A program made the translations under genes and the position numbers. DNA of 64,000 nucleotides from Macrotis lagotis (lineage: Eukaryota > Chordata > Mammalia > Peramelemorphia > Peramelidae), in NCBI RefSeq assembly GCF_037893015.1, contig NC_133658.1, positions 139,419,822-139,483,821 on the forward strand. Reading direction: 5' to 3'. Below, in pieces: positions 1,811-64,000 of the stretch. Within the stretch, counting starts at the first letter, position 1. Each line of letters opens with the position of its first letter. The notes below the pieces were generated by a model that was not told the DNA's origin, made no database searches, and worked only from the letters and a program-made list of their open reading frames with translations.

Positions 1811-21322
<19,512 letters not shown>

Positions 21323-25607: not shown

Positions 25608-26438
25608 AAGTCTTTCTGAAGAAACTTCACAAAGCATGCAACTATCACACTGATCAGCTTCTTCTTAATCTTCATATTGATGATTGATTAAAAAAAGACT
25701 ATAGATGATTTTTCATTTTTTAAACCATGAACATTAAACATTTCTAGATGACAAAGAACAGGAAAGAAATTCTATAAGAAACAATTACTTGGGGAAAAGT
25801 ACATATTAAGTTTTAACAAGGTTAAACCAAATTTATCATTTATATCCCCTTCTATACTTTTTCCTTTCTGTACATTTTTAAAGTTTTATTGATAATTTTT
25901 TCCTGTTGCATACATTGATTTTATATAGAAAGCTGTACCCATTATATCAATTTGAATAACACCATATACATGATGAATTATATTAATTCCTAGCATAATC
26001 CAGTCCATTCCTCATTTTTCCTGATACTGCCATGAAACCAAAAGGAACAACCCTCTCTGAAGTGAAGTTTTATATAGTTGAATAGGAAAGTGTTTTAAGT
26101 CTTTAAAACATTAAAATCTATTACTTCTAAGTTTTGGAATTTTTAAAAAACTACTATAGTAGTAAATATTATGAGACTAGAAACTCAAAAATAGAAGTTA
26201 GTAGAAACACCTTGTTTCTAAAGAATAACAAACGATGTTTAAAGTTATCACTTCAGTTTTAGAGTATTGAGTTTTAAGGAATAACGTGACTGAATGTATA
26301 CCAAACATGCTATGATTATTTGAGAGCTGATTATTAGATATTAAATCTTCCTTATATTAAAACAAATTATGTTTACTGGTTATTGTTTCAGAATTATCTT
26401 CTATATTTATCTACATTAGACCAATAAGAATTTTTCTT

Positions 26439-26593
26439 GGGGTGGCTAGGTGGTGCAGTGGATAAAGCACCTGCCCTGGAGTCAGGAGTGCCTGAGTTCA
26501 GGTCCGGTCTCAGACACTTAGTGATTGCCTAGCTGTGTGGCCTTGGGCAAGCCACTTAACCCCATTTGCCTTGCAAAAACCTAAAAAAAAAAA
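26439..26593 (+). repeat. marsupial tRNA-derived SINE, full length
   Basis: GGGTGGCTAGGTGGTGCAGT head through an A tail. A perfect 13-bp target duplication AAGAATTTTTCTT lies at 26426-26438 and 26594-26606. Confidence 0.93.
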
Positions 26594-27324
26594 AAGAATT
26601 TTTCTTCTGTCACACTGTTAAGAGGGGGTGGGAACAAAGGGCTCTATCCAGTGTAACTAGCAATACCACTCTCTGGAGCCTATAAACAGCAGATTGACTT
26701 GCTTTTTCTTTAGTTGCCCAGTATTCTAGAGAATAATTTGTTTTAAAGGTAAGAGCACAAAATATAGAGCTATACGTAGCTGCTGATCTCAGCCACAGAG
26801 TGCCCAAAGAAAAAACCATTTTAGCCTCATTTTTCCTTTTCCAAAAAATAGCTCATCGTAGGAGCTATTTTCCCATGTGATCTGTTTCAAGTAACCACAT
26901 TTTCAAAACTAAAACTGCTCTGCTATTTTAATATGCAGAGCATATTTTTTAATTCTACACTACTTAATTGGATGAAACAGACAGGACAAAGTTAATTCAA
27001 GCCAAATTCAGTCAGCCCTACTTAGGAAGATATTTTAGGAACTACCCAAAATTATCTCCCACTTCAAAATATTAGTATAGGAGCAGACTCCATCTTCTCC
27101 ATGATTATTTTAAAAAATTTTTCTCCTACCTACACCTCCCAATAATCTCTAGAAAGAATGACAAATTAAGGGGGGGGGGGGGAACGTGCTGCTATTTTAA
27201 CTTAAAGGAAATGGGGTTTTTATCTTTTTTTTTTCCTTTGGCGCTTATTAAAGGAAAAAACTCTTCTTTTGATGAAATTCTCAGGCCAACTTGAAATTTT
27301 AGGAAGTTTCTCTTAAACTCTATT

Positions 27325-33794: not shown

Positions 33795-34015
33795 CACATA
33801 GCTGGGTGTGAGAGATAGCTAGATAATTCAAAGAGAGCATTGGGCCTGGAGTCAGGAAGACCTGAGTTCAAATGCAGCTTCAGACCCTTCCTAGCTGTAA
33901 CACCCAGGGAAGTCACTTAACCTATTTGCTTTAATCCATCTGAGAAGGAAATGGCAAACTATTCCAATAATCTCTGTCAAGAAAACTCCACAATGGAAGT
34001 CAGGGAGAATCAGAA
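33795..34015 (+). repeat. second marsupial SINE type
   Basis: Forward copy with GGAGTCAGGAAGACCTGAGT, AAATGGCAAACTATTCCAAT and a GTCAAGAAAACTCC block near the 3' end. Confidence 0.7.
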
Positions 34016-34019
34016 CAAC

Positions 34020-35257
34020 AAAGGAATTGGGGGTAGCATCCTACAGCTGGGGAGGGTGAGGATAATGAGTTCAATGAGTTCAGGGTGAGCTCAAGAGTTC
34101 TGAGCTGTAATAGAGCTAAAGCCAATCCAATATATGCACTAAACTAGGACTGACTTAGGACCCCCAGCAGCAAGAGTTCTTGAAGGGCACAAACCAGCCC
34201 TGGTCAGGTCAAAGTTTCCATGCTAAATAGTGATGGGGACAGTTCCATGAGTGGCACTTCCAACCTAAACAAGATAAAGAAATTCATTCTAAAACAAAGG
34301 GAAAAAAGCACGCATGCTGGTGAAATCATAATAGAATGTCTAGAGAGAGAAAAGACATGCTTGGGGGACACTTAGATAGGGGCAGACAGAAGAAGAAATA
34401 TGAACTATCACAGGTGACTAGAAGCACAATCAGAAAGGGAGGTGAACCAGGAGAGAATAGTGTTCTAGGAGCAAAGAAAGAGACAATATTCAGGAAAGGG
34501 GGAAAGGCAATATTTTGAATGTTCATGTAGGAGAAGGAATGGCAAAAAAAGTCAGTGGATTTTAAAATGAAGATGTCATTGGCTCCCTTTTAGTAAAAAC
34601 TAAACAGAATGATGAGAAGCCAATCTTGTACTAGTGAAGACTAATTACATGCATGAAATCATGTGTTCATCAAATCATTACATAATAAGAGTTCACATTT
34701 CTACAGTGATTTGCAATTCACAAAATAGCATTAGAGGAATAATGATTTGGAAGCCAAGTTGAAAAACTTTAAAGAGCAGATGGTCGGTGAAGAGGTGTAG
34801 AAAGTAAATGGGGAGATTACTTTTCTGTGTAGTGTGGTTATACACTCCTGGGTACCTCCTTTCACATTTGGGGTCCCCCCCCAAAAAAAGATATTCCAGG
34901 TTGGAGACACTCAAGTCAGAACCCAATAAAAAATTGTTGCTCTGAAGCCTCCACCAATGTGTTTATTTTTACTAGCCAGTGAAATGACATATTGATTAAA
35001 AAGTTTCCCATTAAGTAACATATAAAATAATGTATACTCTGATCAATTTAACCACTGATCACTGTCCATGACTTATCCAAACCTTGTATCTCAAGATCTA
35101 ATGTAGTGTTCTATTTACTAAATTTTTGTGGAATCTATAAAATGACCATTTTGATGATGATATCGTTTACTGATGATCATGAAGTTGAATATTCCAAACT
35201 TTTTTTTTAATGGACATATCACACCTGGAATACTTTGCCCTCTCTCCAAACCATTGT
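34020..35257. other. intergenic, no gene seen
   Basis: Unassigned sequence left of the inverted repeat. It contains no recognisable exon. The open frames at 34326-34526 and 34336-34518 overlap on opposite strands of purine-rich DNA and look like chance. Confidence 0.45.
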
Positions 35258-35720
35258 GCCTTTGCCTATGGAATATTCTAATCAGTAGTACTTGCAGCTC
35301 TTGCCTCTAGAACTTATTTTTGAATCCTAGGCCATCTAGTGTGGCAAACAGAATTCCAGGTATTCTTGAAACAGGATATCCTTTTCCCAAGGAAGAGTCA
35401 GGGGTCCTTGCGTTATTCACTGATGCTTTATTTCAAAAATATGAAGATAAGATCTTACTTTGACCTTCAAAGTGTCATTGGGGTAAACAATTTTCTTTGT
35501 TGGCCATTGAAACCAACCCTCCCCTGAATCCAATGAAACGTTTGAAATAAAGCATCAGTGAATAACGCAAGGACCCCTGACTCTTCCTTGGGAAAAGGAT
35601 ATCCTGTTTCAAGAATACCTGGAATTCTGTTTGCCACACTAGATGGCCTAGGATTCAAAAATAAGTTCTAGAGGCAAGAGCTGCAAGTACTACTGATTAG
35701 AATATTCCATAGGCAAAGGC
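35258..35720. repeat. perfect inverted repeat, 180-bp arms and 103-bp loop
   Basis: Left arm 35258-35437 and right arm 35541-35720 are exact reverse complements at all 180 positions (paired positions add up to 70978). Pairing ends at 35438/35540. The spacer at 35438-35540 is unrelated to the arms. The arms do not match any SINE, MIR or L1 family in the window, and I see no target duplication at the outer edges. The frames at 35339-35527 and 35467-35658 are mirror images created by the palindrome. Confidence 0.98.
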
Positions 35721-36342
35721 TTTCATTTGAAAAAAAAAGTCTTATTAAGTACCCATACTGAGCAGAGCAGTATACAGATTATTAAGAGGAATCACAAGAA
35801 CTTTTGTGGCAAATTGTGAAAAGTCCAAGCAAGGGATGTCCCTCCAATCAAGTCAGATCTTATCTTATAATCCAAACTTAGAAAATTTCCTGAAGACCAG
35901 AGAAATTGTGACCTGCTCATCACATGGGATGAGAAATGTACATAAAATCAAATGAAATCAAACATAACTCTTCTACAAATACAATTTCTAGTCTAGGAGG
36001 AAAGGTTGAAATATTATATATGAGTTCTTTGAAATACTATCATGGTGCCCAAGGGATCTTCACTCTCTGATCATTTGCTTTTGGATGGTCTTCCAGCCTA
36101 AAATGTGTGGTCAACAACTGAACACAAGACTATGATAATGGTCTGATTAGAGCAGAGTAAAATTCTAGACAAAATGCTTCAATTAAAAAATATTGGGTGC
36201 CATTCCTTGGCAGTCCTAGCCTACCCCTATCCATTACTGATACTGATTTCTCCCCAAAATTCAATTCACTTTTCCTCTTCCCCTTCCTGCCCTACCAATT
36301 GAAAAGCAGAATGTAAGTTCCTTGGGTGTAGGGACTTTATTT

Positions 36343-36904
36343 TTTTTTAGAAAGATTTTATTTATTTTAAGTTTTACAATTTTCCCCCTAATCTTGCTTC
36401 CCTCCCCCCACCCCCACAGAAGGCAGTCTGTTAGTCTGGGATGTAGGAACATTCTATGGCATACATTGATCTCAGTTGAATGTGATGACAGAGAAATCAT
36501 ATCCTTAAGGAAGAAAAATAAAGAGATAGCAAAATTGCATAATAAGAAACCGGGTTTTTTCCCCCTAAGTTAAAGGTAATAGTCTTTGGTCTTTGTTTAA
36601 AATCCACAGTTCTTTCTCTGGATACAGATGGTATTCTCCATTGCAGACAGCCCCAAATTGTCCCTGGTTGTAGCACTGATGGAATGATTGAGTCCATCAA
36701 GGTTGATCATCACCCCCATGTTGCTGTTAGGGTGTACAGTGTTCTTCTGGTTCTGCTGATCTCACTCGGCATCAGTTCATGCTGAATTCCTATCCCTCCT
36801 GGTGTTCTGACATACACATACCACAGTTTGCTAAGCCATTCCCCAATTGAAGGACATTTACTTAATTTCCAATTCTTTGCCACCACAAACAGGGCTGCTA
36901 TGGT
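36343..36904 (-). repeat. 5'-truncated L1, 562 bp
   Basis: Reverse L1 3' end from the A-tail complement (TTTTTTTTAGAAAGATTTTA) to a truncation near CAGGGCTGCTATG. The target duplication is GTGTAGGGACTTTATTT at 36326-36342 and GTGTAAGGACTTTATTT at 36905-36921. Confidence 0.85.
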
Positions 36905-36918
36905 GTGTAAGGACTTTA

Positions 36919-37073
36919 TTTGTTTGTTTATTTATTTAGCAAGGCAATGGGGTTAAGTGGCTTGCCCAAGGCCACACAGCTAGGTAATTATTGAGTGTCT
37001 GAGGCAGAATTTAAACTCAGGTCCTCCTGACTCCTGGGCCTGGTGCTCTATCCAACTGCCACCTAGCCGCCCC
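36919..37073 (-). repeat. marsupial tRNA-derived SINE
   Basis: Reverse copy with GGCTTGCCCAAGGCCACACA and the head complement GCCACCTAGCCGCCCC. The target duplication is TAGGGACTTTA at 37074-37084, with the left copy (TAAGGACTTTA) now part of the L1 duplication. Confidence 0.85.
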
Positions 37074-37777: not shown

Positions 37778-38244
37778 TCGGCCCCGAAAAACCTCAGAGG
37801 GGAGGGGCAACGGGCAGATGCCCCCGAAGCCAAGTCTCAGGATTTCGTTCTTTATTCCTGAGCCCGGCGGCCGCACCAGACCACACAGACCCCCACGCAC
37901 ACACCAGGACTCCCAGGAAGGAGGCGGCGCTCGTCCCGGAGCCTGCGGCGCCCGCCGCCTCTCCGAGCCTCCGCTTCCTCCCCCGTCCCCCCGCGGAGCT
38001 GCCGTAGGCGAGCGGGAGCGCAGCACGCAAGCGCGGAAGGGACTGATCCACCTTCCTAAGCGGGGGGGAGCAACTGGAGGGATCCAGCAGGGCCCCGCTC
38101 TGCGCAGTTCTCTCATCCCGCGGACTCGCAGCCTCCATGCTCCCGCGTCCCGCGTCTGCTACTCGGAACAGACCCTTCTCTCAGCCTCACCGCATCCCAC
38201 CCGGTTACTCAATGTTGCCGTCGGCACCCCCCCCCGACCTCCTA

Positions 38245-38406
38245 AATATGGCCTCTCCAGGGAGGCGAGGACGTCATCACCGGCAAGGGGACGCGTAACC
38301 ATTGGCCGGGAGGAGCCAGCGGCGTGCTGTGATTGGTCTAACTGGCGGGGAGAGGGCGGAACCGGAAAAAGGTCCAAGCCGGCGCCCAAGGAGGAGAGGC
38401 GGGGCC
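38245..38406 (+). promoter_or_regulatory. PLPBP: PLPBP core promoter motif cluster
   Basis: In order: a YY1-like AATATGGC (38245-38252), an ACGTCA half-CRE (38271-38276), two inverted CCAAT boxes ATTGG (38301-38305 and 38332-38336, 31 bp apart), an ETS-type ACCGGAA (38361-38367) and a GC box AGGCGGGGCC (38398-38407). This is the usual make-up of a TATA-less housekeeping promoter. Motifs are seen; use is inferred. Confidence 0.6.
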
Positions 38407-38443
38407 CTTTGGAGCGACTTGGGCTGTATGGAGGACCGCCGGC

Positions 38444-52516
<14,073 letters not shown>

Positions 52517-63390: not shown

Positions 63391-63747
63391 AAAAGAAAGA
63401 AACATATCTCTTGCATACAGCAGGTGTTGTTTATTTTTTTTGGTCCTGAATCCCATTGACAATTCTATGGAATCTAGCTATTCTTCCTCAGAATGCTCCC
63501 ACATTCATAACTGAAGGCAATTCCAAATTTCAGTTAGAAGTTAATGAAGATAGATATGAAATTTTTGTCATCCAAGTTCATTAACTCCACCACAGTTTAA
63601 TAGACCCTGACATAGAAGATTGACATGCAGATCTAAAGTGAAAGACTGAAATAAAAATCTGCTGTATGTTGAAATTATGACTTTTCATAAGATAATAACA
63701 AGCAAAAATACTGTTAAGAAAGACACACAGAAAGCTATATTATTATT

Positions 63748-63905
63748 TTTTTTTTCTTTAGGTTTTTGCTAGGCAATGGGGTTAAGTAGCTTGCCCAAGG
63801 CCACACAGCTAGGTAATTATTAAGTGTCTGAGACCGGAATTGAACCCAGGTACTCCTGACTCCAGGGCCAGTGCTTTATCTACTGCACCACCTAGCCGCC
63901 CCAAC
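63748..63905 (-). repeat. marsupial tRNA-derived SINE, full length
   Basis: Reverse copy with AGCTTGCCCAAGGCCACACA and the head complement CACCACCTAGCCGCCCC. A perfect 13-bp target duplication CTATATTATTATT lies at 63735-63747 and 63906-63918. Confidence 0.92.
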
Positions 63906-64000
63906 CTATATTATTATTAAGGCACCATATATAATGAAAAACACTATTATTAAATATACATGCAAATGATACAGCAACCACGTTCATAAAGGAAAAGTTA

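What the first reader, a model, noticed from the sequence alone, without database searches (positions are those of the whole stretch)
35258..35720. Exact 180-bp inverted repeat with a 103-bp spacer between ERLIN2 and PLPBP
I paired both arms base by base: 35258-35437 and 35541-35720 are perfect reverse complements with no mismatch, while all nearby repeats are diverged. The arms match no repeat family in the window. Perfect identity means a very recent inverted duplication, active gene conversion between arms, a fold-back element, or an assembly or library artefact. If real and transcribed it would form a 180-bp double-stranded RNA hairpin, a substrate for ADAR or Dicer.
Basis: seen in the sequence. 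Interest (0 to 1): 0.75.

Follow-up and report, generated by a model that had tools for sequence, protein, structure and literature searches.

The report
Recent inverted copy of 180 bases
A 180-base stretch of marsupial DNA between two genes appears to have been copied backwards, recently, 103 bases away from itself, most likely by a slip of the DNA-copying machinery; this is an ordinary, well-described kind of mutation, and no function is indicated.

Summary
35258-35437 and 35541-35720 are perfect reverse complements (180 of 180) with a 103-base spacer, and the match stops at once at both edges. A search of the window's own 3.66-Gb genome with the arm found only these two places, so it is not a multi-copy transposon or a SINE pair. 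In a 264-kb sample the other 26 of 27 local inverted pairs have arms with 13 or more matches.

Best reading: a recent small inverted duplication made by short-range template switching, the left arm being the source and the right arm the insert. Joining the flanks of the right arm gives a 16-base perfect palindrome across the junction (324 of 200,000 random joins do so) and 3 bases of microhomology; joining those of the left arm gives neither. Zero differences put its age under about 4 million years at an assumed 2e-9 changes per site per year, unless gene conversion keeps the arms alike.

Humans carry the same class: 277 inverted duplications, median 284 bp (PMC12350158). An artefact is not excluded; no reads were available. 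New member of a known kind, low interest.

The parts
35258..35437 (+). left arm, 180 nt; inferred source copy
   Evidence: exact reverse complement of 35541-35720; one of the only two places found in the own genome
35438..35540 (.). 103-nt spacer, not duplicated
   Evidence: matches only itself in the 264-kb sample at E 1e-3; its search in the whole genome did not complete
35541..35720 (-). right arm, 180 nt; inferred inserted inverted copy
   Evidence: polarity inferred from the junctions
35532..35540 (.). left part (9 of 16 nt) of the palindrome that appears when the right arm is left out
   Evidence: a 22-nt quasi-palindrome with one mismatched pair spans 35529-35540 plus 35721-35730
35721..35727 (.). 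right part (7 of 16 nt) of the empty-site palindrome; its first three bases TTT equal the first three of the right arm (3-nt microhomology)
35726..35732 (+). TTTGAAA, equal to the first 7 bases of the right arm (35541-35547); possible longer priming homology in an alternative reading
   Evidence: read; a 7-mer recurs in that way in 255 of 100,000 random trials

Best explanation
A recent germline inverted duplication made by short-range template switching in DNA replication or repair. The new top strand had copied the left arm and the spacer up to about 35540, at the middle of a short palindrome. Its 3' end came loose and paired through a few bases (TTT on AAA at 35435-35437) with the strand just made, or switched to the opposite strand. 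It copied the rest of the left arm (177 bases) backwards, then returned to the original template with nothing lost. Shown: the two exact arms, their absence elsewhere in the genome search, the sharp edges, and that the flanks of the right arm join into a palindrome with 3 nt of microhomology. Inferred: that this join is the ancestral site, the direction, the timing and the enzyme route. No function is proposed; the locus is expected to be neutral or mildly unstable, and its perfection to decay by substitution.
For: 180 of 180 identity with abrupt edges. The arm was found only at these two places in the genome, the left flank at one place; spacer and both flanks match only themselves in the 264-kb sample. 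Leaving out the right arm joins the flanks into a perfect 16-nt palindrome centred one base from the junction (22 nt with one mismatched pair). A perfect palindrome of 16 or more spans the junction in 324 of 200,000 random joins (0.16%), and 3 nt or more of inner microhomology occurs in 6.5% of random geometries. Leaving out the left arm gives 0 and 0 nt of microhomology, and the best perfect palindrome near the junction is 4 nt. One mismatched pair in the short quasi-palindrome, against none in 180 in the arms, suggests that the palindrome is older than the event. Human counterpart: 277 inverted duplications, median 284 bp; most of the class have 1-15 bp of microhomology, which the authors take to suggest a replicative origin (PMC12350158, passages). 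The ape study says template switches often generate perfect inverted repeats and that a subset of ancestral sites had potential for structure (PMC7954356, passages).
Against: No outgroup or second individual was available, so the empty site is inferred. The palindrome was noticed after the fact, and 0.36% of all positions in the intact 264 kb lie inside a perfect palindrome of 16 or more (0.18% if dinucleotide-like ones are left out). Its predicted single-strand hairpin is weak: -2.9 and -3.2 kcal/mol, with 52% and 47% of 3,000 random joins folding as well; the rival empty site (left arm left out) gives -2.0 and -3.7, that is, no worse on one strand. The microhomology is only 3 nt at one junction and 0 at the other. 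The ape model sets the expected length of the copied piece at 10 nt, so 180 nt is long for that class, though not for human inverted duplications.
Confidence: 0.78

Rival explanations
1. A double-strand break at the centre of the palindrome was repaired by end joining with a templated insertion copied from the strand 103 bases away (polymerase-theta or MMBIR-like), rather than by a switch at a running fork.
For: The insert sits one base from the palindrome centre. The product would be the same.
Against: No loss of bases is seen if the palindrome is ancestral. 180 nt is longer than I recall for polymerase-theta inserts (recalled, no call).
Confidence: 0.1
2. Assembly or library artefact: an in-vitro snap-back or a faulty gap fill put a reversed copy into the sequence.
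For: The published assembly that fits this genome rests on about 10x HiFi reads, with gap filling by PBJelly and polishing by Pilon (PMC11239497, passages). No reads could be examined.
Against: A snap-back chimera has one junction (recalled, no call); here both edges of the insert return to distinct flanks, with an unduplicated spacer. A 463-base structure is far shorter than a usual HiFi read (recalled). The window has no N.
Confidence: 0.08
3. An older inverted repeat kept perfect by gene conversion between the arms, or by repeated template switching.
For: [quoted passage not shown]
Against: The edges are abrupt, with no decayed shoulder, and the flanks of the right arm still join into a near-perfect palindrome.
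Confidence: 0.06
4. A fold-back or MITE-like transposon with 180-nt terminal inverted repeats.
For: Overall form: long inverted arms around a short middle.
Against: The genome search found no further copy of the arm in 3.66 Gb. No target-site duplication at the outer ends (read). In the 264-kb sample arm and spacer match nothing but themselves.
Confidence: 0.01

Closest known systems
Human small inverted duplications (SVAN class 'inverted', PMC12350158; passages seen)
   Same: a reversed copy of a few hundred bases inserted near its source; little or no homology at the junctions; here, as there, no mobile-element features needed
   Different: seen here in one marsupial assembly, fixed or polymorphic state unknown; the source lies 103 bases from the insertion point
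Short-range template-switch mutations (four-point model; PMC7954356 passages, PMC8794818 abstract and part of Results)
   Same: one event yields a perfect inverted repeat able to fold as a hairpin; ancestral potential for structure is reported for a subset
   Different: the copied piece (177-180 nt) is much longer than the 10 nt taken as expected length in the ape model
Fold-back inverted duplications with disomic spacer (PMC3907307; passages seen)
   Same: source, unduplicated spacer, inverted copy, and short inverted microhomology at the inner junction (2-8 bp in 13 of 21 there)
   Different: those are large rearrangements of chromosome ends with sequenced spacers of 766 bp or more; here both sides continue normally
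Small inverted triplications (PMC13334657; abstract and one section seen)
   Same: similar size (148/160/148 bp on average, spacer 30 bp) and a proposed replication origin
   Different: there direct copies flank an inverted one; here there are two copies only

Membership tests
Small inverted duplication (human SV class) | at least 75% of the inserted sequence aligns in reverse orientation at the insertion point, alignments being taken within 2 kb of it (PMC12350158 methods) | tested here: met
   180 of 180, near edge of the source 103 nt away; that it is an insertion is inferred, no empty allele seen
Small inverted duplication (human SV class) | segregates as an insertion against an empty allele | not testable with these tools
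   no second individual held
Short-range template-switch mutation | descendant differs from ancestor by one reverse-complement copy of nearby sequence | tested here: inconclusive
   the product fits; the ancestor is inferred only
Short-range template-switch mutation | microhomology or hairpin potential at the switch point (seen in part of the events, not required) | tested here: inconclusive
   3 nt and a 16-nt palindrome, but the predicted hairpin energy is unremarkable and no better than that of the rival empty site
MITE / fold-back transposon | multiple genomic copies | tested here: not met
   two places found, the two arms themselves
MITE / fold-back transposon | target-site duplication at the outer ends | tested here: not met
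   left ...ACCATTGT, right TTTCATTT... (read)
Small inverted triplication | direct copies flank an inverted one | tested here: not met
   no direct repeat of 20 nt or more in 34200-36800
microRNA or hairpin RNA gene | match to a described RNA family, or transcription | tested here: inconclusive
   no Rfam match on the repeat at E up to 1; transcription not testable here

The most novel reading that the evidence does not exclude
A newborn 180-bp perfect hairpin, seeded by a template switch at a palindrome, that is transcribed in read-through or upstream RNA of ERLIN2/PLPBP and already acts as a dsRNA source (small RNAs, ADAR editing), caught before any mismatch has arisen and perhaps still polymorphic in bilbies.
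Probability: 0.04. Interest if true: 0.5.

Novelty: new member of a known kind. Interest (0 to 1): 0.15.

Why it matters
It is a clean and apparently very young example, in a marsupial, of how one copying error can make a long perfect hairpin with no transposon involved. With the existing bilby resequencing it could be dated and its polarity tested. It reveals no new system.

Tried and rejected
Transposon or SINE pair: rejected by copy number. Coding content: 12 stop-to-stop frames of 40-68 aa overlap 35200-35780; I take them as noise and did not search them against protein libraries. RNA family: the only match at E up to 1 in 34000-37000 is a sub-threshold one (20.4 bits, gathering score 50) at 36235-36365, outside the repeat. 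Left arm as the insert: its empty site has no perfect palindrome over 4 nt near the junction and no microhomology, though its predicted fold is no weaker on one strand. A longer 7-nt priming homology (TTTGAAA at 35726-35732) was considered; it would need a 5-nt filler and would make the palindrome a coincidence, so it is kept as an alternative that also makes the right arm the insert. Base rate: a larger genome sample was wanted and not obtained; the control is 20 stretches of 10 kb on one contig between 10 and 210 Mb, not genome-wide. Papers: six searches; the search 'bilby' with 'inverted' gave 54 papers, of which 8 were listed, none with a title on this locus. I make no wider claim that it is not in print.

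Full report
The feature. The two arms 35258-35437 and 35541-35720 are exact reverse complements over 180 bases, separated by 103 bases that are not duplicated. Outside the arms the pairing falls to chance at once. It is the longest of 119 inverted pairs of 40 nt or more in the window, and the only perfect one among the 25 that were listed. In the window plus 20 control stretches of 10 kb from the same contig (264 kb in all), the next longest perfect inverted pair within 2 kb is 42 bases.

Setting. Untranslated exons were not mapped. The window lies in a genome of 3,655,600,598 bases in 607 contigs whose contig 1 is 934,355,481 bases. The published greater bilby assembly is 3.66 Gb, with 609 scaffolds and a chromosome 1 of 934,426,298 bases (PMC11239497, passages). 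That near match makes a version of the greater bilby assembly the likely source; this is an inference.

Not a repeat family. A search of the own genome with the arm at E up to 10 found two places, the two arms themselves; the tool scores only its best candidates and skips very common words. The left flank was found once. The same search for spacer and right flank did not complete; in the 264-kb sample, arm, spacer and both flanks match nothing beyond themselves at E 1e-3. Of 27 inverted pairs with arms of 40 or more and spacers up to 1 kb in the 264 kb, this is the only one at 100% identity and the only one whose arm has no matches beyond the pair; the other 26 arms have 13 to 178 matches. No direct repeat abuts the two outer ends.

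Which arm is new. If the right arm is left out, the flanks join as AATGAAACG|TTTCATT, a perfect 16-base palindrome centred one base from the junction, and a 22-base quasi-palindrome with one mismatched pair. The first three bases after the junction (TTT) equal the first three of the copy. Among 200,000 random joins in the 264 kb, 324 (0.16%) had a perfect palindrome of 16 or more bases across the junction, and 6.5% of random geometries had 3 or more bases of inner microhomology. If the left arm is left out, both microhomologies are 0 and the best perfect palindrome centred within 12 bases of the junction is 4 bases. Against giving this much weight: I noticed the palindrome on reading the sequence, so 0.16% is not a planned test; 0.36% of all positions in the intact sample lie in a perfect palindrome of 16 or more; and the single-strand hairpin predicted for this empty site is weak, -2.9 and -3.2 kcal/mol on the two strands, with 52% and 47% of 3,000 random joins folding as well, while the rival empty site gives -2.0 and -3.7 (70% and 37%). 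TTTGAAA, the first seven bases of the copy, also occurs at 35726-35732; such a recurrence came up in 255 of 100,000 random trials. Read as a 7-base priming site it would need a 5-base filler; it too makes the right arm the insert.

Mechanism. The simplest account is a short-range template switch: the growing strand left its template in the palindrome, primed on AAA at the inner edge of the left arm, copied it backwards, and returned. The ape study says that such switches often generate perfect inverted repeats and that a subset of ancestral sites had potential for structure (PMC7954356, passages). The RNA-hairpin study says that one such event can create a perfect stem (PMC8794818, abstract and first part of the Results). 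For size the better comparison is the human long-read catalogue of 1,019 people: 277 inverted duplications, median 284 bp, most of the class with 1-15 bp of microhomology, which its authors take to suggest a replicative origin (PMC12350158, passages). Large fold-back duplications share the source-spacer-copy layout, with 2-8 bp of inverted microhomology in 13 of 21 sequenced junctions, but are of another scale (PMC3907307, passages). Small inverted triplications are of similar size but have direct copies on both sides of an inverted one, absent here (PMC13334657, abstract and one section; direct repeats).

Age. With no difference in 180 pairs, the 95% upper age is 8.3, 4.2 or 2.8 million years at assumed rates of 1, 2 or 3e-9 per site per year (the rates are assumptions, from no call). 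Gene conversion would void this bound.

Function. As RNA the stretch 35200-35780 would fold into a very stable hairpin (-378.9 kcal/mol on the + strand, z -39; -390.4 on the - strand, z -36), as any long perfect inverted repeat must. No Rfam family matches the repeat at E up to 1, and no expression data were available. I propose no function.

Artefact. The published assembly used about 10x HiFi, with gap filling and short-read polishing (PMC11239497, passages). A simple snap-back chimera has one junction (recalled), whereas this has an entry and a return with distinct flanks; but without reads an artefact cannot be excluded.

Noticed in passing
38001-40000: GC-rich stretch (56.9%; the other 2-kb bins run from 33% to 48%) around the first PLPBP coding match at 38426, as expected for a CpG-island promoter.
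   Followed up: no
2893-3020, 26423-26599, 36912-37040, 48202-48307, 63742-63918 and others: Many diverged repeat copies forming inverted pairs at 80-94% among these places; arms of this kind have about 100 matches in 264 kb. They look SINE-like; that label is recalled, from no call.
   Followed up: no
9739-9837 and 11831-11929: A 99-base inverted pair at 96%, 1993 bases apart, the most alike of the other 24 listed pairs; its family was not examined.
   Followed up: no
35200-35208 and 35730-35738: A run of nine T left of the left arm and a run of nine A just right of the right arm (read); the latter could be a polymerase stall site next to the insertion point (inference).
   Followed up: no
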